Shown here: piece by piece, positions 1 through 21,300 of the stretch | How the letters are laid out: the number at the start of each line of letters is the position of its first letter | How positions within the stretch are numbered: the stretch's first letter is position 1 | DNA from: Fomes fomentarius | Taxonomy: Eukaryota > Basidiomycota > Agaricomycetes > Polyporales > Polyporaceae | Assembly (NCBI GenBank): GCA_022606135.1 | Contig: JABYQN010000002.1 | Location: 3,658,001 to 3,722,000, forward strand | Direction of reading: 5' to 3' | Length of the DNA: 64,000 nt | Program-made: the position numbers and the translations under genes | The notes under the pieces: model-generated | What the model was told of the DNA's origin: nothing | The model's database searches: none | What the model saw: only the letters and a program-made list of their open reading frames with translations

Positions 1-469
1 GGGAAGAGCCCCACTGAACGCCGTGGGTTAATAAGCTTGAGTAGACAAAGACCTTGTAAATGCATCAGTAGACGACAGTTCAAAGGGTGATGGACGACAC
101 CACTGAAGAGTTTGTGGCACTGACGAAAGGGCAAGGCGAAAGCTCGTAGACGGAAAAAGAGACACATCGCCCTTTGCGACAGAAACGAGGGCGAGATTGC
201 CTATCGGTATACGTCGCCATCCACATGTGACGGGAAGCACATTGCGACACGCAACGTCTCTTCTTGTTCTCCAACATACAGTCAATTACACGATACAATA
301 CGAGATACAAGTACACAAGCAGCGATTCTGTGCGTGACGATACTTCCCTGTCACACCAGCGAGCGTCCGAGGCCTGTATTGAAACCTTAGAGGCCATCCT
401 GGCCAGCGGCGGGGAGAGTTGTCATCTCTGAGCCGGTGTGTCAGTGCGACATCGACATCCGAATATATG

Positions 470-1133
470 TTACGCGATGAACTCACCATCGACGACCTGG
501 TCCTGGTTGCCCTCAATCGGGAAGGAGTCCATGACTTCCTTGAAAGCAGCATCGAGTCCTTTGCAGAAGTTGCGCGATGCACCGCTCGCAATCCACCAAG
601 CCGAAGTGAATTCGACGAACTCATCGAACGAGCGGAATCGAATGTGGAACATGCGGAGGGGCTCCCCGTCCGGTCCCGTCTCGGTGATTGACACGGTGGT
701 CTGGGTCTGAAGAGCGTACTTGATTTGACTGGGCCGAACGAGCTGTGAAAAACAAAGACTCACCTGGAATGCGTCCAAGGTAAAAGATGAGTTGAGCGTC
801 TTCGCGATCAGCGGCTGGAAAGTGTCCCGGCTGCTGGCGAGACGGTAATGCCAGTTGCCGTTCCGTAGCCCTTCGCAGATGATGAGGCCGTCTAGACTTG
901 ACGTTAATGAAGACGTCCAGAGACACGAGCATAGACTCACAAAGGCCCGACGTAACCTCAACCAGAGCAACCTGACTAGCCGTCCAGGCTAACTTCTCAG
1001 CATTCTCAATACCTACCATCTCGCGATCATCCAGGACGGAGACCTTAAAATTGGAGACGAGGACGGACGGAATGCTGCAAAACAATGTCAGTGCCGTCTC
1101 CAGTTTGGGTGTACGTAGGCGGACTAACGGCAT
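470..1133 (-). CDS. Hypothetical protein, two exons
   Basis: The model reads from an ATG at 1133 through exon 1133-941, a 49-nt intron (892-940, GTGAGT...CTAG) and exon 891-470, giving 204 residues. No domain is recognised. The sequence looks like real soluble protein, with motifs such as GLIICEGLRNGNWHYRL and MFHIRFRSFDEFVEF, and no membrane segment or signal peptide. The pattern of a compact beta-rich N-terminal half followed by a helix is loosely reminiscent of PH-like folds, but this is only an impression. A second possible donor lies just before the stop (GTGAGTTC at about 475-482). Splicing there to an acceptor near 426 would add a C-terminal exon reaching about position 286, so the C-terminus may be longer than shown. 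The start codon is supported by an open frame with no need for an upstream exon. Confidence 0.55.
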
Positions 1134-1643
1134 TTCTGACGAGTGCGACGAGTGGACGATTGGTGGGGACTTGAGAGGATTGAGCGACGAGGAGAAGGGA
1201 CTGGGAAGCTTCTTATCCTGGGCGACACAAAGGATGCCTTTACAGTGGTGACCTGTGCCTCATGGCTTTCTTTCGCTGCTTTGTCCCTGGCGTGGTGCGG
1301 AGCGCGGCGTGGTGAAGTGCGTCGCGGGACAGCGTGGTGAAGTGCGTCGCGGGACGGCGTGGTGAAGTGTGGTGTGAGGCGGTGTGATGAATTGCGTTGC
1401 GGGACGGCGTGCTCTAGCATGTCGCGGACGATTGAGCAGAGGCAAGTTGAAGTTGTATGTCGCTACAGTCAGTGAGTCACGTTGCTCTCAAAATGGAAAT
1501 TTCCTCAGCGCCTTCGGAAAACACCGGGCGAATGCTGGTACGTTATGCTTCTCTTCAATCGCGGGGTACATAACCTTCTCTTTTGTGCCAACTGACTATG
1601 AAAGCCTCCGCACAGTCATCTCTCTCCTTGAATTCAGTCCACC
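1134..1643. other. Intergenic spacer holding a minisatellite
   Basis: This is the spacer between two divergently transcribed genes. Apart from the minisatellite at 1306-1415 it holds no frame I can support. Confidence 0.5.
1306..1415. repeat. Minisatellite, 25-bp unit
   Basis: Units of the form GGCGTGGTGAAGTGCGTCGC plus GGGAC occur at 1306-1330 and 1331-1355, followed by two degenerate copies up to about 1415 that carry internal insertions. The unit length is not a multiple of three and the tract lies between genes. It is GC-rich and strand-asymmetric. The core GCGTGGTG also appears, on the opposite strand, in the minisatellite near 10.8 kb. Confidence 0.8.
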
Positions 1644-2475
1644 ATGTCCTCGTAAGATAGCGTCGTGAGTCCCTAGGAGTGCTTGCGCTGACTTCTCCAT
1701 ACATAGCCATAGCTCGGAGTCGACACCCCACATCTTGTACGCGACTGATGCAGCTGAGATCGCTACACCTGACGAAGCTGGCCGGCTACGCTGGCTCAGC
1801 ACACGCGTTGTTCTCGCCGAACTGAGCGCAGACACTCGTGAGTACAATTTTCCCTACGTATTCAAGCTATGTATATATTCATATATACAATCCTGGAACA
1901 GTCGGAGTAGTTGCACGTTACATTGGCCCATCTCCCGCCACGATACCCGGTCTATCCGCTATCATCGATGAGCACTTCTGGTATGCTCTGGACGAGGTAT
2001 GTGTTAGCATTCGGCCTCCCGCAGCGCATTGATAGCTTAACATCCTATCAGGCAGAGGGCGTCGTTTCTATCACGCTGTTCTCGTGCAGTCAAGCTCCTG
2101 ACAGCACACGTCGTGGTCACTACGCGCTGCGCTTTCAGCAACTCCTTGACTACTCAGAGTTTGCACGCTTGGTCGTGAATGCGAAGACCGAGATTGACCG
2201 CCGCCAAGCACTTTTGTCTCAACGTCTTGCCGAGCTGTTCGCCATACAGTATACCTACAGTCGCATCACTTCTACTCCCTCCCTCAACGAAGAGCGAGCA
2301 CCGATACATCTTGCATCCATTGCCGTGCAAACTGGGACCTCTGTTCGGGATGAAGGTAAGAGCACATCATGACTCTAAAGGGCAGTCGCTGAAATCATGA
2401 CTAGACGGCGAGCTTAGCGTCTATAATCCTCCAAGCTCGTCGGGCAGTGCTTCCGATTCTCCGCAAGACGAGTAA
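1644..2475 (+). CDS. Hypothetical protein, five exons
   Basis: The start is ATG 1644 in a good context (CACCATGTCC), followed after only 8 nt by a 55-nt intron (1652-1706). Further introns are 1838-1901, 1997-2051 and 2356-2404. The exons sum to 609 nt and keep one frame, giving 202 residues. The protein starts MSSHSSESTPHILYATDAAE and ends in an acidic serine-rich tail SGSASDSPQDE. The middle contains a probable amphipathic helix (EFARLVVNAKTEIDRRQALL). There is no signal peptide and no membrane segment. I do not recognise a family. It is transcribed away from the unknown gene at 470-1133, so the two may share the spacer that holds the minisatellite. Confidence 0.65.
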
Positions 2476-2715
2476 ACAAAACTCAGTGTAATCTGTTTGT
2501 GCATCATTTAGTATGCCTGTTACCGCCTGTCCTGTACCTCGTACTGTTCCCTCTCAATCCAAGCTCGTTTCGCGACATTTTGTTCACACTAAGGGACCTT
2601 TTGCGCTTTCAAATCAGCTATTGTTCATGTGAATACTTACCAGGTGTCAAAGCACCTTGCTGCAGGGGACCACATATCAAGGAGCTACGATCATCTCTCA
2701 TCCACACTTCTCGCC

Positions 2716-3983
2716 ATGACCTCACTCGCAATGAATGCCCAGCCGGCAGGGAAGGTAAGTAATATCGATGTATTATACCTTCAGTGCTAATGTGGAAACG
2801 TTATTGCAGGAGAACGCAGTCTTCCTTGGGGTGTTCCGCCGTCATCTCGGCGATGTCGTTCTCACCACATTCGCATTGATGAAGAAGCCCATCTCCTTCC
2901 TCCTAACCGTTGCTCTAAGTGCAACGATGATGCGCTACTCTATCTTGTACGGGCTCAATGTTGCTCAAACTGACATACATACGATGAATGTTTGCGAGTT
3001 TCCCATCCTCTCCATGCTCCCGCTCTGCACCACGCCTCCTGCACACACACCTCCGCTAACACATGCGGATTTTCCTGCCCTCATCGCCATCCAGCATCGC
3101 GCTCTGGATGAGCTTTACCTGAACTCCGCCATAGGCCTCGATCTTGTGCTCAACATTAAGCACGCTGAGCTTGCTGCACGCGATCTGGTCATCATCGTCA
3201 AGTCGAGCGACCTCTCCAGCAAGGACGCCCTCGCAGATGTCCTCACAGGCTTCTTGTCAGACGCACGGCTAGCAGCGCGTGACCTTCAAGTGTTCACGTC
3301 TAAGCTATATGGAATATTGGATAGGTGAGTACAACTTGGTATGTCCCATCTGTCGACCCGCTCATATGATGCCTAGTCTTCTCGCATTCAATACTTATGC
3401 GCTGCGCGCTATCGAGTCTGTGCGGGAACCTACGGCCAAGCCAGGCCTTACTTCGCCTCTTGGTCAAGCCCTCGTCCGCACGTTCGAGTCGTCGTTGCTG
3501 TCCTTCACCGCGGCAATCTCCACTATCATCTTGGATGCAACGACCACTTCGAGCAGCCTCGATCGTCTAGAAGAGCGCTTGGCCACTGCTCATGCGCTCA
3601 CTGTTCAAGAGGCTTTTGACAATGCCCTTGCATTGGACGACCTCTTGTGGGAGCTTTGGACACGCCTGGGCGGCAATAGGCACAAACTGCGCGATCTCAG
3701 GAACCGCGAAACGACGTTGAAACAGGTTCAGCAATGCCGCAATGTCGCTGTGGCCTATGTTGCTACTGCCATGCACACTCTGACGGTCCTTGAGGTGGAG
3801 GTATCGGAGCTTCGTGACCGGTTGAGTACCTCAGCAATGGAGGCCATCGCGGTGCCGTTTGAAGTGCAGTTGGCGAGTATCGAGGCCAGCGTTTATCGGA
3901 TGAAGGAGGAGAGCTTGACACGTCGGGGTGGCTCACTGGAGCATCATCACGGAGGACAGCGCCTCATTGACGGAGGACGGTGA
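2716..3983 (+). CDS. Putative single-pass membrane protein with coiled coils
   Basis: Three exons (2716-2754, 2810-3324, 3377-3983) join in frame to 386 residues. Exon 1 encodes MTSLAMNAQPAGK. A hydrophobic stretch follows (KPISFLLTVALSATMMRYSI) that looks like one transmembrane helix. The remaining 300 residues are mostly helical with heptad-like leucine spacing (for example LDRLEERLATAHAL and VLEVEVSELRDRLS), which suggests coiled coils. The tail is basic and histidine-rich. No SUN, KASH or other named domain is visible. It lies about 2 kb upstream of a SUN-domain gene on the same strand, with a WD40 gene convergent between them. A functional link to the nuclear envelope is possible but only inferred. 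Confidence 0.65.
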
Positions 3984-4026
3984 TGACTGCGGGGAAGGAT
4001 CAATTCATTGATATGTGGGAGAACAA

Positions 4027-5556
4027 TTACTCTACATTGTAGATGTGTGTGATGAAGCTCTCAACAACGAGAGCATGCATCTGAAAGAAGATGACTACAG
4101 CAGGGACGATCACAAAGATACCGATATAGACCAGGCACTATGAACGTGTGAGCACCAGAGATCGCAGCAAAACGTTGAATGACATACCAACCGAGACCGT
4201 CCGGGGCGGTGTTTACCAATGTTATCATCACCTGTAAGTCATGAACAGCCGAAATATTGACTAGATGTCTAACTCACGAGCCATCCAAATGATGATGTCG
4301 GAATCTCCCTCCAGATCGCTCACACCAGCGGCAAGGAGGAACAGGTCCTCTTCGGGATTGTAATTAGCCTATCATGCTTGAATCAGTGCAAGTTATCTAT
4401 GTTATCGTTGCACCTACAGAAAGGGCGCGGACATTGGGGTACCCTGCAGACGATAATCAGAAACCTACTGTATGTCACATGAATTGTATTCCGTACCTTG
4501 CGTGGCAAATGTCTGGTGCAAGCGCCCATTATGCACGTTCCACAGTCGGGCAAGTCCAACGGTCCCACCACCCAGAAGCGCGTGCCCTCCATGGGCATAC
4601 AGGACCGGGACCGTGCATTCGCTGCCGTCGTCGACAGGGAACGAACGTAAACAATCGCCTGTGACCAGATCGTAGAGGTTGAACCCAGAACCTATGATCG
4701 ACAGAGCTATGACGGACCCCTGTGGTGACATGCAAGATCCGCCGCTGGGAATGCGTGACTACAATGAAACAAGATGGCGGGGATGAAATAGCTTACATGT
4801 CATTGATGGGATATACCTGGAGACGTCGCCAATCGGCATTTCTGTATATACTGTGTATGATGAGCATAAGGCGCGATCGTAGGCCTACGGACGTACATAA
4901 TACCATGGTGGGCATAAGTGATGACTACGACGGAGTCGTGGACACGTGTCTTCGTCCAGTGAACGCCTATCACTATGACTTCCTTGTCCGCATTTGTAGA
5001 GTCGACGGGTGGAGAGGGAAGCTTGAACTGAACTCCCCACTTCCCTATAACATCACATCGGGGGTGGGGGTGGATGATGGAGAATCCGGAGGGGATATAT
5101 GGGACTTACTATGCCGATCGCGTTTCCAGACCTTGACTTCCGGTAAGCCACCAGAGATTAATTGCCCACCCTTCGCCGCCAGACATTCTATCGGGTACGA
5201 ATGAGCCTCGAAACCGCCAAGCTCAGCTATGCCCTGTTCAACAAGCTCAGAAAGTCGCTGCTCTGTCGAAACTAAATACGTACCGACAAGAATCCCAACT
5301 CAAAGATGTAACCGCTCTGTGACCCACAGAGCACAGTCGGATTGTCGCCTGGTAGCCATTCGATAGAGAGCACGGGGGCTCGAGAACCCTTGTACGTGTG
5401 CAGCAGCTTCTTGTCAGCCATACGCCATATATAGACCTTCTCGTCCGCCATGCCAGCAGTCGCAATGTAAGCTCCATCGGGACTGAAAGCCACTGCTGAC
5501 ACGCCGCCAACAAGTCCACGTTTCAGTCGAGCCACAAGTTCGTATCTGAGAGCCAT
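4027..5556 (-). CDS. WD40-repeat protein with C-terminal membrane anchor
   Basis: Translation starts at ATG 5556 (MALRYELVARLKRGL) and immediately enters WD40 blades: GVSAVAFSPDGAYIATAG ending in VYIWRM, then VLSIEWLPGD. Later exons on the same strand supply further blades (VKVWKRDRH near 5120; GVHWTKTRVHDSVVVITYA near 4950; VGLARLWNVHNGRLHQTFAT near 4520). The gene is cut by several short introns. The last exon encodes LVYIGIFVIVPAVVIFFQMH followed by a short hydrophilic end and a stop at 4027, so the protein seems to be C-tail anchored with its propeller in the cytosol. Such beta-propellers are usually docking platforms; the partner is unknown. Exon borders in the middle are approximate. 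Confidence 0.8.
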
Positions 5557-5817
5557 AGATGATCAAGTTATTGAGATTGAGACACGGTGAGTACAGTGGA
5601 AGTCCGTGAAGACAATGGACTTTCTTTGGCGCCGGCACGAGAATTGTTACTAGTATGTAACAATGACATTGTTAGTCGATCTCCTCTACGTACTGTGCGC
5701 TGTGCGACCTCATTCCTAACATCTCCCGCCTCAGTCTATCATCTCCCGCCCCAGTCCTTCCTGCTACCGCCCCAAGGACTCTCACGCAAAGCTTTTGTCG
5801 CGTATATATCCGTGGAG

Positions 5818-6882
5818 ATGCGCACCCCGAAGAAGAGTCGCTCGGATGTATTCCAGGATCGCTTCGTCTATGAAGCTGAGTGCCCACCATCGAGTGAGTA
5901 TGTCATGGCACTATCTGCTCTTGATGTATCTTGACACATGGTGGGTATTAAAGAGGGCCGCGCTCAGGGTAAACCTCAAGAGCATGTACCAAACTCGCAT
6001 GACGCCACTCCAGTTTCCAATACAGCCGAAGGAGGCGGGTGGCTGATTCGCGTGGCCCAGGTCTTCACGGTGGCATGCGTTATTACCTGCATTGGCATCG
6101 TCGCACTGGACACCAGCAGTGGGCCGCCTACGTCCCCTGCAATTGCAGAACTTTCGCGTGAGAGGGACGTGGTTCCACCCCTCTTGCCCGGCGACTTGCT
6201 CGAGCGCTTGCTCGCGCCGCCTCCAACGACGGAGTCACCGATGATAGCTCAAGATGTCCTCGCCTATGTACACCATGCGATCTCAGCCGCCCTTCGCGAC
6301 CCTGTTGGTCGGAGAGATTTTGCGCTGGTTGCTGACGGCGCTAAAGTTGTCAACAACTTAACCTCTCCATCGCCGCTCACCGGCGACAACTCACCGGAAC
6401 TCGCCCTGAGGGACGATTTACGGATTGGCCAATGCTGGTTGGTGGATCAACGGAGCTTCCAGCTTGGGGTTGGCCTACCCGTCTTCGTGCATCCGACCCA
6501 TGTCACTGTGGAGCACATTCCTCTCGAGATCGCCGCGGACATTCGCCAATCCCCCAGAAAGATGCTCCTGTGGGGAATGGTCGAGGGGCCACTCAACAGG
6601 GCCCGTTACCGTAACCTCGTCGCAAACGGCGTCGTTCTCCCCGCCGCGACATATGGTCGATATGGGCCGCATCTATCTGACGATCGTTTGTTTGTCCTGC
6701 TCACCAGTTTTGAATACAACATCCATGCTCCCTTTCATGTTCAGACTTTTCCTATCTACGACACTATCCTAGACCTCGACTTCTATTTTGGTGTACTTGT
6801 TCTGGAAGCCGTAGAGAATTGGGGTGCTGAGAGTACGTGCCTCTATCGCTGGCGCGTTCACGGCCGTGAGATGCTCCCGTAA
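5818..6882 (+). CDS. SUN-domain inner nuclear membrane protein, short form
   Basis: Exon 1 (5818-5893) joins across a 60-nt intron to exon 2 (5954-6882), giving 334 residues. The order is a short basic nucleoplasmic N-terminus (MRTPKKSRSD), one transmembrane helix at about 56-77 (VAQVFTVACVITCIGIVALD), a linker of about 95 residues, and a C-terminal SUN domain at about 174-329. Diagnostic blocks are GQCWLVDQ, VTVEHIPLEIA, KMLLWGMVEG and the terminal NWGAESTCLYRWRVHG, which matches the classic end of SUN domains. SUN proteins sit in the inner nuclear membrane and bind KASH proteins in the perinuclear space to form LINC bridges for nuclear positioning and chromosome movement. The coiled-coil stalk between membrane and SUN domain is very short here compared with Sad1-type proteins. 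Confidence 0.9.
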
Positions 6883-7058
6883 TTCTAGTATGAATTCGAA
6901 TATAATCACTCGCATGTACATAGAATGCTCATCAAGGAAGGTGACCCGTGCATGTCCGACATGCGCCACTCGATGCCAAAGGGTGCCATTACGACAAAGC
7001 AATCGATGCCACAGATATCCCGTTTGGTGAGTACCTACCTCCGCTAACATCTCCCACC

Positions 7059-10000
7059 ATGAGCCACCCAGAGCAGTTTACCGTCGCGAATGTCGACTCA
7101 GGAGTCGACAGCGAAGGCTTGGGTGAGTTGTCTCATATATGAGCACCGCATGGGCCATAGCTAACATAGGTATCTTGGTCCCATAGTGTACCAAGGTCCA
7201 TACGAGACCGCATCTGTGCTCGGGGCACGACGTGCCCCACAACGCGCTTCAGATGTCTTGAACATCAAGAATCGGAAGGTCAAGGACACTGTGGGTGGAT
7301 CTTCGTTGCATATTTGGTGAATCTAAATCATGTTTGTCAGGATCGTCCGAAACCGGTTCAATTGAAGCCACCTTTCAAGGTTCGTTTTTGCTAGCATTAT
7401 GAGTAGGTGACCCGAAGTTAACGCAACGCTATAGGTCGGCATAAGAGAAGAACCAAGTCGGAGGAAGGCCCGTCTGGATGCAGAGGCCCGTCTGAATGGA
7501 GGGGACGCAGAGGTAGGCATAGCATCTGACTGTCGTCTAACATCTTTAGTACTTACGGTATATCATCAGCGGCGAGAATCCTCTGCAACTACTACAACGG
7601 TTCATCGACCTTCCAAGGCCTTACCCAAGAGGACCTCCAGAAAGGCTACAACTCCACCCCACTCAGCCGCGCCTCCTCCTGCACTACCATCTCCTGCCGA
7701 GAATCCTACTACTCCACGAGCCTGGCCCCTTCCACCTCAGTCCCCGCCAGCACAGCCAGCAGCTCCACTCAGTGCCGCGCAGATGGACTTTGATTTCTTA
7801 GACGCTCAGCCCGTCACCCTGCAACGTTTGCTCACAGCGGCTTCTCAGCAGGCTCCTGTTTATGCTATGGCGAACGAGTTACTATTGCCCTCTCGCGAGT
7901 CAGCCCCGCCCGCCCCGCACCCACCCACCCCGCGCGCATCTGTCCCGCGCGCATCCACCCCGCACGCATCAGCCCTGCACGCACCCACCCCGCACGCACC
8001 AGCCCCGCACACATCCGCCCCGCACGCACCCGCCCCGCACGCATCCGTCCCGCATGCATACGCCCCGCACCCTCTCGAAGGGCAGAACAACCCCACAGCT
8101 CCCAACACCATGCCCACCATGCCCCCTCTTGGGCTTGGCCCCCCTCCCATCCCTCCTCGCCCCGGGATGTTGGCTCCTATGGTGACTGCGGCCGACCGCC
8201 CTTCCGAACCGCCATTGGTCACACCCATCCCGGTCAATGCGATCTCGTATCACGAGTCTCCGCTGCAGATTGGATCTGCCGGTGTGATGCAACATACAAC
8301 TTTTTCGAGGTTGAATCGGACGCCGTCTGTGACGCATCTGACCCCCGAGTTTTTGCTATTTTTGGGAGAGTCATATCAGCATCATCACGGCGCGCAGGTT
8401 GTGAGTGAGCCTTCTTACATCATGCTAACAAAGGTATGAACCGTGACTTCAGTCTAATCAGACTCTCTGGAACTTGTGGAGCACACTGGACGAAGGTCAA
8501 CAAGCTTTGCTTGTCAACACGTACACGAAGTGGTCTGCGCAGAAACAGATGCAGGCTCGGGATGCAGAGTTCAGTTGCGTCCGCACCCGCCTCCTCACCA
8601 CCAGTAGTCCAGACGAGATCACAGACCAGCCCGGTCCATCCCAATTGACTCCAAAAGGCGCGGGCTCAGCATCTTTGCTCACTGCGACACCATCGAATGC
8701 ACCGGCCGCCCAACCAACTTCTTCATTGACCCGTTACGATACACTCTCATCCGAATCCAGTATCTGCTTTGAGAACATGGAGATGAACACTCTTGACGGT
8801 GTTGAACCGGAGGCGGCGGCTGTATACGATTTATCCTATCGGGTGTGTACTATCTCGACTCATAGTATCCTCATAACGCTCTACTCATCTCATCGAAGAC
8901 CACGCTCTCCCATTCCAACACTCAGCAGTCCATCTCGTCCACTGACACAGTCACGCCTGCATCTACTTCGCGTGACAAAGGAAAGGTGGGGTAGTGTTTG
9001 TAGTAAAGACTAGTGATAAACTGATTCAGATTCCGTCAGGGCCGCGCGACAAATACTATGGACTGGGAGGGCGGTGCGAGCAGCGGAGACGATGATACCG
9101 AATATGCAAATTACAACGCCAACGCCGACTTGGACAATGATGCTGACAACGAAAACAGAAGCGACGACTCCGACGGTGATGAAGACGACCCAATGGCCAC
9201 TGAGGTATGCCTTTGAATAGCTCGCGTCGGGCGTTCTCCCTCACTATTGATAGACTTTCGCTGATTCTGAGAAGGCTGGGACATACTACAACCCGCAAAT
9301 GTTCGTGATGATGTTCAGGAAGGTCGATATGATCTCCAAAGCCATCCATGAACAGGGTCAATTGTTGCTACAGCAGATGAAGGGGAATCAAGAGTTCCAG
9401 TGAGTTCTCATCATTCTAATTGTGCCCGTCTCGTATTTGACGAAATGATCAGAGCAGCGTGTCTAGCGGAGTTCAAGTCCATGCGTGAACGGTCTGATGA
9501 TCCCGTCCCCAAGAAACCGAATAAAGCGGCCCCGCGAGCGGGTGCGGCCGTACGCAAGGCCAAAGCACGGGCTGCTAGAGCTCGCGGGGAGGAGGTCGTC
9601 CTTACACCAGCGGAGGTCGAGCGAGATCATCTCACTCGCTTGCAAGTACGTTTTTCTGTAACAACAAACTTGCTCGCTATTGAGCGATTTATAGGGACGT
9701 TTGCACGCACATGTTCGTCTATTGCTGAAGATCAGCGACACCAAAGAGCTGTTCGACAAATTCCCTACACTCACCGACGCTCAGGAAACTGCCTATCTCG
9801 CTGGTGCACCAGACGCTGTGCAATGCACCCCAGACAACCTCTACATTGACTTCCAGCGTCGGTGGAAGGGCTTTAAGCTGAACCAGGTGGCACGACATAT
9901 CATCGTGCGGACATTTCAGAGGAAGGCAGAAGGCGGGACCTTCCTCAGAAACCCTCCTCCTCCTCATCTCTTGACCGACGAGTCTGTCAGTGATGTGACA

Positions 10001-10651
10001 GACAACTACATGAAGTCTTTACGTCGAGCATGGAGGAAAGGACAAAAGCCCCCCACAGAGGAGAGGTTGAAGGAGATTCAACGCCAGGCAGCCCGGAACT
10101 CAAGGACGAATACCGTGAGTCGTCATCGCGGTGCAATCGCGCGCGTAGCTTACACGGCATACCTTTCACAGCTCTACCAGTCTCGACTATTTGTCTGTAT
10201 CCATTTCAAGTACACGAGACACCAAGCTCTCTTGAGCATGATGGCTGCTTCCAACATGAGTGGCGACGAAACCGACGGTGAGCAAGTGGAGCATCCGCCC
10301 GTGTACCGGATCATCATCGCCGCGTGGCAAAGCCATGAGCTACGAACGCTCCTGTGGTCGTTGGATGCCAAATACATTGACCATTGGAAGTCACCGCCGT
10401 ATCAGAGGCGTACCAGCGGCAACCCGGTGCGAGTTCGTCGACTACATCAGACATGTCGGACAGTGTCCGGGATTGCTCCGATAGGCCTATGGCGCAACTG
10501 CTACAACTCGGAGTGGTTGGAAACGCTCGATGAGTGGGAGATCGAGCTCCTCGAGATCAATGAAGAGGAATACGACTTCGCGTTAGAGGCCAAACCCCTG
10601 AAGTTGCAACCGCCACAGTTTGGAGGTGTCGCTGGCCCATTTACACAATGA
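7059..10651 (+). CDS. Lineage-specific multi-exon protein of an expanded agaricomycete family
   Basis: The gene starts at ATG 7059 (CACCATGAGCC). Small exons encode MSHPEQFTVANVDSG, VYQGPYETASVLG, DRPKPVQLKPPFK and VGIREEPSRRKA. A long proline-rich exon (7570-8400) follows, then serine/acidic segments (DADNENRSDDSDGDEDDP near 9140), a basic alanine-rich segment (about 9500-9600), and a helical region (LLLKISDTKELFDKFPTLTD). The C-terminal module (about 10240-10651) has the pattern of a domain I recall as repeated many times in polypore genomes, including a GNPVRVRRL block and NCYNSEWLETLDEWE. The function is unknown. The proline-rich part carries a pentapeptide repeat. A minisatellite and AT-rich spacer follow directly, a setting common for transposon-associated or recently amplified genes. 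The number of exons (at least ten) makes individual borders uncertain. Confidence 0.6.
7930..8072 (+). repeat. 15-bp coding repeat encoding a His-Ala-Pro pentapeptide
   Basis: A 15-bp unit close to CACGCACCCGCCCCG is repeated in tandem within the proline-rich exon of the gene at 7059-10651. It encodes PHAPA/PHASV-type pentapeptides. Being a multiple of three, copy changes keep the frame. The same tract leaves long open frames on other frames and on the minus strand, which are shadows. Confidence 0.85.
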
Positions 10652-11932
10652 TGTCCAGCGCATTGGTGGACAACATCCATTGCTCGCTCACCCCCACCCG
10701 CCCGACTACATCTCACTGCGCAGGACCGCACTACTCCCCATCGCAGGACCGCGCAGGACCGCGCTACTCCCCATTGCACGACCGCGCTGCACCACACAGG
10801 ACCGCGCTGCACCACGCAGGACCGCGCTGCACCACGCAGGACCGCGCTGCACCACGCAGGACCGTGCTGCACCACACTACTCCCCATTGCAGGACCGCGC
10901 TGGACCGCGCTGCACCATTACTCCCCATTGCAGGACCGCGCTGGACCGCGCTGCACCACTACTCCCCATTGCAGGACCGCGCTGGACCGCGCTGGCGCTG
11001 GACCGTGTTGCTCGCGCTCGCCCACTCGCCCACTCTTACTGCACCACACCCACGTCGGACTGCCCGCAGGACCGCGCAAATCTCCACTCCTTCGTGTCCC
11101 AGAGCCGCGTTGCGCGTTGCTCCCTGCCCCCACGCTCACTTATCACATCGCAAATGTCTTATCTAATGGTTGTATTCTTGTTTGATCGTAATCTGATCGC
11201 TGTAATCTAATCTGATTTTGATCTCATCTAATCCCCGTAATCCCCGTAATCCAATCTGATCTTGTTTGACTAAGACATGCCTGAAAGGGTTACCAATTGG
11301 ACGCCTATCCTCCATCACAAAAGGGATAACATAACAAAGCCTTGGCAGGGTATCTGCCTAGGGGGTATAATATCTGTCACCCACCTATCATCTGCCAATA
11401 TTCACGGTGCTCTAGGTTAACTCAATACCGGCCATCGGCTCGCTATAACTTATTGTTATAGAGGTGTTATAAAGGATAAATAGGGAGGTTGTAGGTGGTT
11501 GGTGTGAGAAATATTGATAACCTATGACAAAGTGCTATAGGCGTGGCGCAGCAAAGCTTTACCCCCTCTATACCCTCACGTAACCTTGGAGTGGACATAC
11601 TGTCTTTGGCCCTAAAACAATAGATGTGCTATAGGCGGTGCGTAGGTTTACTATTCCCTGGTGTTATAGGGAGACGATAGCCGCTGGATAGCTATACGTC
11701 GTGCGCCGCTATTACCTGCCTATTACGCGGGGGATAACACCCCGGGGCCCGCAGTGTACAAGAATTTTGGATTGTCTCCTTACCGGAACACGTGGCTCGC
11801 AACCGGATCAAGAAGACGCCCAGTACTTTGAAGTGTGAACAGACTTCCAGTCCGACTAAGCAGGCCGTCCTTGTGCTTTTCTAAAGGGTATAGCACCACT
11901 CGATGCGTATGTATATATACTCCTTATTCTCA
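10652..11932. other. Intergenic spacer: minisatellite, then AT-rich segment
   Basis: After the stop at 10651 comes a minisatellite (10716-11010) and a tract of GTAATCTGATC-like words (11170-11270). Beyond it is an AT-rich stretch (about 11280-11760) with two loosely similar blocks starting GTGCTATAGGC (about 11531 and 11628). No coding frame is supported. The composition differs clearly from the GC-rich neighbours and looks like decayed mobile-element sequence, but no transposon protein is readable. Confidence 0.5.
10716..11010. repeat. Minisatellite with 20-bp core and longer higher-order unit
   Basis: About four copies of ACCGCGCTGCACCACGCAGG occur between 10788 and 10870. They are flanked on both sides by longer units built from TACTCCCCATTGCAGGACCG plus CGCTGGACCGCGCTGCACCA. 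It lies just behind the stop codon of the gene at 7059-10651. The apparent open frames through it on both strands are products of the repeat. Confidence 0.9.
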
Positions 11933-18390: not shown

Positions 18391-21300
18391 ATGGTCGACT
18401 TTCCGTCCTCCGCACCCGATCTTCACTCCAGTTCATCACTCGATGTGCACTACCAACGACCCACATATCTCCCCTTCCGGCGCATATCTTTGCCATCTGC
18501 TCCGAATCTCCAGAACCGCCAATCTATTGTGAGCACGGCGTCTTTCGACTCATTACCGGAGGAAGGTGGTCCGCCCATCCCTGCTACCCCTGTCGTTATC
18601 AAGAATGTGGTGAGGGCACCCAGACAAAGACCATCGTCAGTAGACGTCTCAAGGCGAGGAGTGCGGCGGAGGGAGTCGCGCATGGTCGACGAGCAAAGAG
18701 AGGCAAAGCGGAGGAAGGTCATCGCAGAGTTCTACGAGACGGAGAAGTCGTACTTGGACGGGCTCGAGCTTATACACTCGGTGCGCATTTTCCTTGTTCT
18801 TTCCATCATAATATGCGTCCTCACCTCGCCAATTATGCGTCCTCACCTCGCCAATTCAATGCCAAAAGCATTTCCTAACGCCCATCATCGCATCTTTGGA
18901 TACTCCATATCCTCTCCTCACTCGCGCCGAACTCACCTCCATATTCTCCAATTTCATTGACATCTGGAACCTGCATCGCTCATTCTACACCTCTCTCACC
19001 GCTTTCCTCAACTCTTCGGCCTCGGCATCTCTCCAAGACCTCCCTCCGCCTCTGTCTCCCGTCCTTCTCGCTCACTTCCCCTACCTCTCGCTCTACACCC
19101 CTTTCGTGAGCTCATTCTCGGATGCGCTCGCTTCGTATGCTGCTCTCTTCCGGAACAACAACGCTTTTGCAACGTTCATTGCTCAACAGGAAGCTGATCC
19201 GCGCTGTGGCAAGCTCAAATTCAGGGACTGGCTCTTGACTATCGTCCAACGATGTCCACGCTATCTGCTCTTGCTGAAAGACATCATTGGTTGCACTGAC
19301 TCGGAGGACCCAGAATACGCGTCTCTGACTGCGGTACATACGCTTGTTTCCAAGAGTGAGTAGCCCTTCTCACTGCTGGTGACTGAGAATTCGATGGGAT
19401 ACATTATATCCCATCATGCTGGTTAGGATTGCTTTCGACAATGACAGATTATAAATTCCCATTCTAGATACTAGAATCATGGGAATACAGATTCATTGTC
19501 GAATGCAATCCTAACCAGCATGATGTACGCCATCGAATTCTCAGTCACCAGCAGTGTCTGCCGTTATGTGTACCGCATACTCATGCGTACATGCTTCACA
19601 GTCACCATGTCTCTGAACACCTCACTGCACACCCATGCACAGACCCTGTCCCTGCTCGCACTACAACGCAATACCGTCAATCTCCCCTTCCAACTCATAA
19701 CTCCCGGCCGCACATTCCTCAAGCGTGCATCTCTCCTCCAGCTCGAAGGCTCCACACCCAAGGAGCGCGAGTTCCTCCTCTTCTCAGACTGCCTCATATG
19801 GCTCGCGAGTGCAGACGGGGACTTCTTCTCCGAGAGATGGGGCGCTCTCGCCGTATCACCTGGTGCCGGCGCGAGCACCCCGGACCTCCGCTTGCGGACG
19901 AGAAGCGACGCCCAGGCGGATGTCATCCATAAACGGCAGTCGCTTCTTAATCTCAAGATGAACGGAAGCCCGCGGAAGAAGCGGCAGGCGAGCAGCGGCG
20001 TGGACGACAGATGGATATATAGAGGCCATGTGGACCTTGTCGACTTGGAGGTCGTCGTAAGCACTCCGGCGGTCGGCGACACACCAGAACGTGGGTTTGA
20101 GCTGCTGAGCCCTCACCAGTCGTTCGCTGTCTACGCAGGTGAGTAATAGTGATCACTCACTAACACCGCTCATGTGGTAACGTACGTTTGTAGTGGGCGA
20201 GGAGGAGCGGGACGAATGGGTGACTGCGATTCGGAACGCGAAGTCGTCCCTTCTTGTGTCGCTGAGTGTCATGCAGCTCAACTCGACACTGACGTCCTCT
20301 GCTTCCACAAATCATCTTCGCCGTACATTGCAGGCGCTGCCTTATGCACCCGAGGATGCTTCGAAACCCAAGCGGGGGAAGGTCGAGCACTTCGTTCCTG
20401 CAGTGTGGATTCCGGACGGGAAGACGGAAAGTTGCATGCGCTGTGGCCGGACATTTGGTTGGCGGAGACGAAGACACCATTGTCGGCTGTGTGGGCGATG
20501 TGTTTGCGGTAGTTGCTCAGGGAAGGTAAATAACACTCAATCTCTCAGGAACGATCGTCATGCTCATATCCTCCAGACATTCTTCATTGTCGACCTAAAC
20601 GCCAAAGACCACAAGTCTGCTCGTGCATGCGAAGCCTGCTATGACACCGTCTTTCCTCTCCTTGAGCAGCCGCCAGGACCCTCGGTGACTGTCACAGCTG
20701 GTACCACGCACTCTCATTTCACCCTCTCTGGGCTCAAATCCATGCCCTCCCTTCTTTTGAACAATGACGTCACTTCTAATACACCCTCCGCTCTGATGGC
20801 GATCGATCTCGACTCTCCGAAACGGGTGCTGACGCGGATAGAAGACGAGTCCTACTCACCCTCACCTTCAGAAGAGCCTAGCAGTCCAGCAGTCGCAGCC
20901 ATGAGGCTGAAACCAGCACAGCGTCCAAAGAGCTACATCCAGATCCTCGAGGAGTTCGAAGCACAAGAACGCGAAGCGTCTCCAGCAGCAAGTCCTCGCG
21001 CATCGCGATTCAGCGAACGCAGCACTATGGACGACTTGGACGAGCGAGACGAAGAGGTCCTAGACAAGGACGGACAGGAAGCAGAGTTGCCCAACGCCTT
21101 CGCGAGCGCAGGGAGCCAGCCGTCCACACCTCGCAAGGAGAACACCGCGCGGCGGCACAAACGGTTCTCCCTCCCTGCGGTCGCGCTGCAGACGAGTCCC
21201 GTGACAACGCGGCCGAGCTCAGACGGCGGCAGCAAGGCGCACGGCCACCGCTTCTCACTCGTGCTTGGCAAGGGCGGTGGTGTCTCGCACCAGTCGGAGC

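What the first reader, a model, noticed from the sequence alone, without database searches (positions are those of the whole stretch)
19356..19601. CACTA-like MITE caught inside a 57-nt intron
The intron between the DH and PH parts of the RhoGEF is 246 nt. It contains a 186-bp palindromic element with perfect 27-bp ends and TCT on both sides. Taking out the element plus one TCT leaves exactly 57 nt, a standard intron for this genome. The ends are intact, so insertion is recent. The long hairpin could slow splicing or form a double-stranded RNA structure.
Basis: partly seen in the sequence, partly recalled or inferred. Interest (0 to 1): 0.75.

Follow-up and report, generated by a model that had tools for sequence, protein, structure and literature searches.

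The report
Palindromic mini-transposon inside a fungal intron
A 186-base self-pairing mini-transposon appears to have jumped recently into a normal 57-base intron of a fungal signalling gene, and because it should fold into a hairpin it may leave splicing almost undisturbed.

Summary
Window 19371-19556 is a 186-bp palindrome with perfect 27-bp ends (CACTG...CAGTG), flanked by TCT, in a 246-nt intron of a FYVE/RhoGEF gene. The closest relative found (97.7% ungapped protein identity) reads through this intron as exactly 19 extra codons = 57 nt, matching the reconstructed empty site (one TCT) at 17 of 20 residues: a lineage-specific insertion.
It is the only palindromic copy found in the 40.9-Mb assembly. 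Four non-palindromic 108-138-bp relatives share its end; one has its own empty site with an exact CCA duplication. Two PF02992 transposase families here also end in CAGTG. So it is best filed as a CACTA-type non-autonomous element, not a high-copy MITE; its parent was not found.
The guess that the hairpin slows splicing is not favoured: modelled 5' splice site-to-branch path is 20.1 steps with it, 20.4 without, 38.0 +/- 16.9 for shuffled inserts; no RNA data exist here. Ordinary in kind, unusually clean. Separate oddity: a 23.9-kb CACTA-type element at window 1-11756 with permuted flanking trinucleotides.

The parts
18391..18780 (+). exon 1 of the FYVE/RhoGEF gene (start codon at 18391)
   Evidence: reading frame; splice choice inferred from homologues
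18781..18868 (+). intron 1, 88 nt, with a tandem copy of a 22-nt unit; 19 codons (57 nt) read through in P0001
18869..19355 (+). exon 2, RhoGEF (DH) domain
19356..19601 (+). host intron, 246 nt, GTGAGT...CAG
   Evidence: junction K-I-T as in homologues without an insertion there
19368..19370 (+). target duplication TCT, left copy
   Evidence: single copy inferred in P0001
19371..19397 (+). 27-bp terminal inverted repeat, left
19371..19556 (.). 186-bp palindromic CACTG-ended non-autonomous transposon
19530..19556 (-). 27-bp terminal inverted repeat, right
19557..19559 (+). target duplication TCT, right copy
19580..19584 (+). candidate branch site CTCAT, branch A at 19583, 26 nt past the element (inferred from a recalled fungal consensus)
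   Evidence: sequence; context printed
19602..20138 (+). exon 3

Best explanation
A short non-autonomous CACTA-type (CACTG...CAGTG) DNA transposon inserted into a pre-existing 57-nt intron of a FYVE/RhoGEF gene, duplicating 3 bp (TCT). The insertion most simply happened after this lineage split from its closest sampled relative. The element is a foldback that looks like two head-to-head copies of the left part of an older 108-138-bp element family in the same genome. It was presumably moved in trans by a TNP2-type transposase, several of which are present (inferred; no transposase was linked to it). In the pre-mRNA it should fold into one long hairpin lying between the 5' splice site (15 nt away) and the likely branch site (26 nt away), so the spliceosome meets nearly the same spacing as in the empty intron. 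Shown: the element, its duplication, its relatives and a second empty site. Shown at protein level only: the empty intron in the near relative. Inferred: which enzyme moved it, how the palindrome arose, the branch site, near-neutral splicing.
For: Empty site: P0001 (333 of 341 compared residues identical, 97.7%) carries exactly 19 extra residues at the intron, SEQPFCRHVYRILMRACFTV; the window's reconstructed empty intron translates SE*PFCRYVYRILMRTCFTV, 17 of 20 the same; a second TCT would add a codon. Of 120 homologues read (the best of 268), 65 align across the junction: 14 show no length difference, one lacks three residues, 50 carry 16-24 extra residues (48-72 nt), none more. Family: relatives at C2:3941284+, C8:321429+, C6:1888323-, C14:79129-; against the C2 relative the arms match over 62 nt at 82% and 40 nt at 88%. 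The C8 member interrupts an inverted repeat whose other arm reads straight through ...CCCTACCAGTTTGACCAG, with CCA on both sides of the element. Class: two families with PF02992 matches end in CAGTG (CACTGCGGG...; CACTGAG..., one end only); the three flanking trinucleotides of the 23.9-kb family each occur twice. Ends CAC..GTG with 3-bp duplications are given for fungal EnSpm in PMC12730594 (passages read). Splicing: modelled path 20.1 (full), 20.4 (empty), 38.0 +/- 16.9 (60 shuffled inserts; 1 of 60 as short), first and last base of the element paired with P = 0.97.
Against: Only one palindromic copy was found, so it could not be dated against siblings, and its donor is missing. No autonomous element with this end was found: the first 19 nt with up to 3 mismatches, and no more than 12-bp matches to the element in the 28 loci of ~3-4 kb around transposase matches. 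Of the four relatives only one has a matching 3-bp duplication (CCA; the others GTA/ATG, CAA/GTG, CAA/TAA). A third PF02992 family has different ends and apparent 6-bp duplications. P0001 is a predicted protein; its DNA was not seen. The homologue set favours introns without in-frame stops, so a stop-containing element elsewhere would be missed. The splicing argument is thermodynamic modelling; splice-site accessibility did not distinguish the element from shuffled inserts, only the path length did.
Confidence: 0.88

Rival explanations
1. The hairpin impairs the gene: it lengthens the intron beyond what this fungus handles well, causing retention (the intron has in-frame stops) or dsRNA processing.
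For: 246 nt is over three times the longest intron inferred at this site among the 65 homologues that span it (72 nt). The retained intron has stops in frame, one of them even without the element, and the helix is very stable.
Against: The element pairs within itself and leaves the modelled 5' splice site-branch path as in the empty intron (20.1 vs 20.4); splice-site accessibility is also unchanged (5' site 0.29 vs 0.28, 3' site 0.39 vs 0.36), though shuffled inserts gave similar accessibility (0.23 and 0.36), so that part does not discriminate.
Confidence: 0.25
2. The palindrome is not a transposon but an inverted duplication, or a hairpin RNA gene that arose in place.
For: Only one palindromic copy was found in the assembly.
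Against: Exact 3-bp duplication, an inferred clean empty site in the near relative, four dispersed relatives sharing the end, and one of those with its own empty site. No Rfam match in the window at gathering scores.
Confidence: 0.04
3. The element was ancestral and P0001's lineage lost it by precise excision.
For: Excision exists for cut-and-paste elements (recalled).
Against: Of 65 homologues spanning the junction none carries more than 24 extra residues, and the next closest (P0002, P0003) have 17, with the caveat that stop-containing introns are invisible there. Precise loss of the element and one TCT is less simple than one gain.
Confidence: 0.05
4. It belongs to another 3-bp-duplicating group such as Plavaka or PIF/Harbinger rather than CACTA/EnSpm.
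For: Plavaka transposases are also present (22 PF18759 matches), and PlavakaB makes 2- or 3-bp duplications (PMC12730594 passages).
Against: Plavaka termini in that paper are TGT..ACA or CATCA..TGATG, not CACTG. The duplication here is TCT; for Harbinger a TWA-type site is recalled.
Confidence: 0.08

Closest known systems
CACTA/EnSpm (TNP2) DNA transposons of fungi, non-autonomous members
   Same: CACTG...CAGTG ends, 3-bp duplication, terminal inverted repeats; families with PF02992 matches and the same terminal pentamer in this genome
   Different: No coding capacity; no autonomous partner with the same 27-bp end found; whole body palindromic
MITEs and foldback elements
   Same: Short, non-coding, inverted repeats, target duplication, gene-internal site
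   Different: One palindromic copy and four non-palindromic relatives found, instead of many copies
Zipper stems of yeast introns (PMC12350175, passages read)
   Same: Stem between 5' splice site and branch site that shortens the effective distance
   Different: Here the stem is a transposon, far longer, and the intron without it is of ordinary length; the linker total is 41 nt against the paper's 42-85 nt rule
Introners / introner-like elements (PMC4457414, seen in a search listing only)
   Same: Repeat unit associated with an intron
   Different: Introners create introns; here the intron predates the element

Membership tests
CACTA/EnSpm | Termini CACT(A/G)...(T/C)AGTG (pentamer recalled; CAC..GTG in PMC12730594) | tested here: met
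CACTA/EnSpm | 3-bp target duplication | tested here: met
   TCT here with inferred empty site; CCA for a relative with empty site; the other three relatives do not match
CACTA/EnSpm | Moved by, or sharing ends with, a TNP2 (PF02992) element | tested here: inconclusive
   18 PF02992 matches in the genome, 17 over the cut-off; of four groups of loci examined, two families share the terminal CACTG/CAGTG, one has other ends, one gave no clear end; none found with the 27-bp end
CACTA/EnSpm | Subterminal repeat array | not tested
   no dedicated test made
MITE | Short, non-coding, TIR plus target duplication | tested here: met
MITE | High copy number of near-identical copies | tested here: not met
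   one palindrome, four diverged relatives, one isolated end; the tool calls its counts lower bounds
Plavaka | Termini TGT..ACA or CATCA..TGATG | tested here: not met
Introner | Element creates the intron | tested here: not met
   57-nt intron inferred without the element in P0001; 16-24 codons in 50 of 65 homologues spanning the site
[quoted passage not shown]
   15 nt and 26 nt (total 41) with an inferred branch A at 19583; rule from PMC12350175; no RNA probing

The most novel reading that the evidence does not exclude
Palindromic elements are a self-cloaking class of insertion in intron-dense fungi. Because the hairpin brings the splice signals back to their original spacing, foldback elements can enter ~55-nt introns without a splicing cost that a non-palindromic insert of the same length would pay, so selection filters intronic insertions by their ability to fold.
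Probability: 0.3. Interest if true: 0.6.

Novelty: new member of a known kind. Interest (0 to 1): 0.35.

Why it matters
It is a clean single event: filled and inferred empty versions of one short intron in near-identical genes, with a palindromic insert whose effect on splicing can be separated from its length. It would let one test directly whether intron hairpins protect short-intron genes from transposon insertions.

Tried and rejected
Introner (intron created by the element): rejected, the short intron exists in P0001 and other homologues. Known structured RNA: no Rfam match at gathering scores and no tRNA match in the window. An autonomous partner by the end sequence: none found; the isolated end at C13:695149 (L007/L022) shares 28 bp, but no second end was seen in the ~5 kb downstream that I held. 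No match longer than 12 bp between the element and 28 loci around transposase matches. Four groups of PF02992 loci were examined for ends: the giant family and C18/C5 gave CAGTG ends, C13/C3 gave CCCAGTC-type ends with apparent 6-bp duplications, C12/C5 gave no clear end. The second end of the C18/C5 family was not found (5 matches, 2 of them the known ends, 3 others with 2-3 mismatches not followed; reversed control 2).

Rows dropped before counting the family. One search gave 17 matches (reversed control 10): 2 are the element's own ends, 1 the isolated end, 4 the relatives; one with 2 mismatches (L010) and nine with 3 (L013-L021) were left out because the sequence beyond the pattern does not match. 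One search gave 7 matches (reversed control 12): 4 are the relatives, 3 with 2-3 mismatches were not followed. One search gave 3 (reversed control 0): 2 are the two arms, 1 at C4:656261 with 3 mismatches was not followed. One search (11-mer CACTGCTGGTG) gave 42 matches against 82 for the reversed pattern, so chance level, and was not used for counting.

Literature on CACTA MITEs in introns of polypores or basidiomycetes: in the listings I saw no title or abstract start on this case; I read only passages of PMC12730594, PMC12350175 and PMC3411680, and list rows otherwise. DNA of relatives could not be searched with the collections at hand; the species was not determined (named homologues include Rhodofomes, Trametes and Hericium).

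Full report
What is there. The intron of a FYVE/RhoGEF gene at window 19356-19601 is 246 nt and contains a 186-bp palindrome, 19371-19556, whose outer 27 bp are perfect inverted repeats; TCT lies on both sides. The 27-mer with up to 3 mismatches had no match in 100 shuffles of the window, and the folded intron is 17 standard deviations more stable than shuffles. The inner arms are not perfect: they differ by substitutions and a 10-nt indel. The element is 41% GC against 55% for the window.

The empty site. DNA of relatives could not be searched, but protein predictions that read through the intron served instead. P0001, the best of 268 homologues (120 listed and read), is identical at 333 of 341 compared residues and holds 19 extra residues exactly at the junction, i.e. 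57 nt. Its read-through peptide SEQPFCRHVYRILMRACFTV matches the translation of the window's intron after removal of the element and one TCT, SE*PFCRYVYRILMRTCFTV, at 17 of 20 positions; PFC spans the insertion point, so one TCT is inferred. Of the 120, 65 align across the junction: 14 with no length difference, 1 lacking three residues, 50 with 16-24 extra residues (48-72 nt), none longer. Introns with in-frame stops would not show up in such a set, so this does not prove that no other species has an insert; it does show a long-standing short intron here and an empty site in the nearest relative found.

The family. In the 40.9-Mb, 24-contig assembly the palindrome was found once (the tool warns that counts are lower bounds). 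Four relatives share the end CACTGCTGGTGACCGAGAATTC or close variants and run to CAGCC(G/A)TG, 108-138 bp, without being palindromes; an isolated 28-bp end lies at C13:695149. Against the C2 relative the right arm matches over 62 nt at 82% and the left arm over 40 nt at 88%; a multiple alignment carries the likeness somewhat further in. So the element looks like two left parts joined head to head. The arms have diverged inside while the outer 27 bp are identical, so the palindrome was probably made before this insertion (inference). One relative, at C8:321429, has CCA on both sides and sits in one arm of an inverted repeat; the other arm, reverse-complemented, reads through ...AATGCCCTACCAGTTTGACCAG without it. 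That is a second empty site and confirms the ends and the 3-bp duplication of the family. The other three relatives do not show a matching 3-bp duplication. In the pairs compared, relatives are 75-81% identical, except L008-L009 at 87% (L009-L011 not compared), so loss with age is possible but not shown.

Class. Ends were sought for four groups of PF02992 loci. Two families end in CAGTG: a 23.8-23.9-kb family in three copies with both ends known and one at C18/C5 with one end known. The third (C13/C3) has CCCAGTC-type ends and apparent 6-bp duplications; the fourth (C12/C5) gave no clear end. Fungal EnSpm with CAC..GTG ends and 3-bp duplications, and the different ends of Plavaka, are in PMC12730594 (passages). 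So CACTA-type is the best filing, with the parent element unidentified.

How it likely behaves. The element lies 15 nt after the 5' splice site and 26 nt before the likely branch A (19583, inferred from a recalled consensus). In sampled structures the path from 5' splice site to branch A is 20.1 steps with the element, 20.4 in the empty intron and 38.0 +/- 16.9 with shuffled inserts of the same composition, 1 of 60 of which was as short. Splice-site accessibility is unchanged from the empty intron, but shuffled inserts give similar accessibility, so that measure does not discriminate. Yeast work describes stems of this position as zipper stems that can help splicing, with 42-85 nt of linker (PMC12350175, passages); here the linker is 41 nt. 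I therefore think that the hairpin makes the insert nearly neutral rather than slowing splicing, but no RNA evidence was available.

Verdict. It is a new member of a known kind. The wider idea, that foldback elements are tolerated in short introns because they fold away, is testable and not excluded.

Noticed in passing
window 1-11756 (G000:C2:3645860-3669756): The window begins inside a ~23.9-kb CACTA-type element with ends CACTGCGGGCCCCGGGG; copies bounded by the same ends also at C2:1412903-1436755 and C10:2074557-2098389, 97-100% identical in the stretches compared. A Sad1/UNC-like domain is encoded at 5935-6879 inside it, possibly cargo (the other 8 reading frames tried had no Pfam match at E <= 0.01).
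   Followed up: partly
window 11757-11759; L063, L065, L068, L069, L070: In element orientation the flanking trinucleotides of the three 23.9-kb copies are CGG/GTA, GTA/GGA and GGA/CGG: none matches itself, but together they form a perfect cycle (copy 2 reverse-complemented by hand). This indicates exchange between copies (rearrangement of C2 and C10) or misassembly across the 24-kb repeats.
   Followed up: partly
L071-L074 (G000:C13 and C3): A transposon family with a PF02992 match (E about 1e-10), CCCAGTC...GACTGGG ends and apparent 6-bp duplications (GCTGAA, ATTCAA), unlike the 3 bp of CACTA elements.
   Followed up: partly
L022 5322-6442: Broken reading frames next to the isolated 28-bp end look like class-II DAHP synthase (recalled resemblance, not searched).
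   Followed up: no
window 18781-18868: Intron 1 of the same gene is 88 nt with a tandem copy of ATGCGTCCTCACCTCGCCAATT; P0001 reads 19 residues (57 nt) there. Two introns of one gene may thus have grown from 57 nt by different routes (direction inferred for intron 1).
   Followed up: partly
L024 4016-5029: The C8 relative sits inside the right arm of another, unidentified inverted-repeat element (177-bp arms, 86% alike), i.e. a nested insertion.
   Followed up: partly
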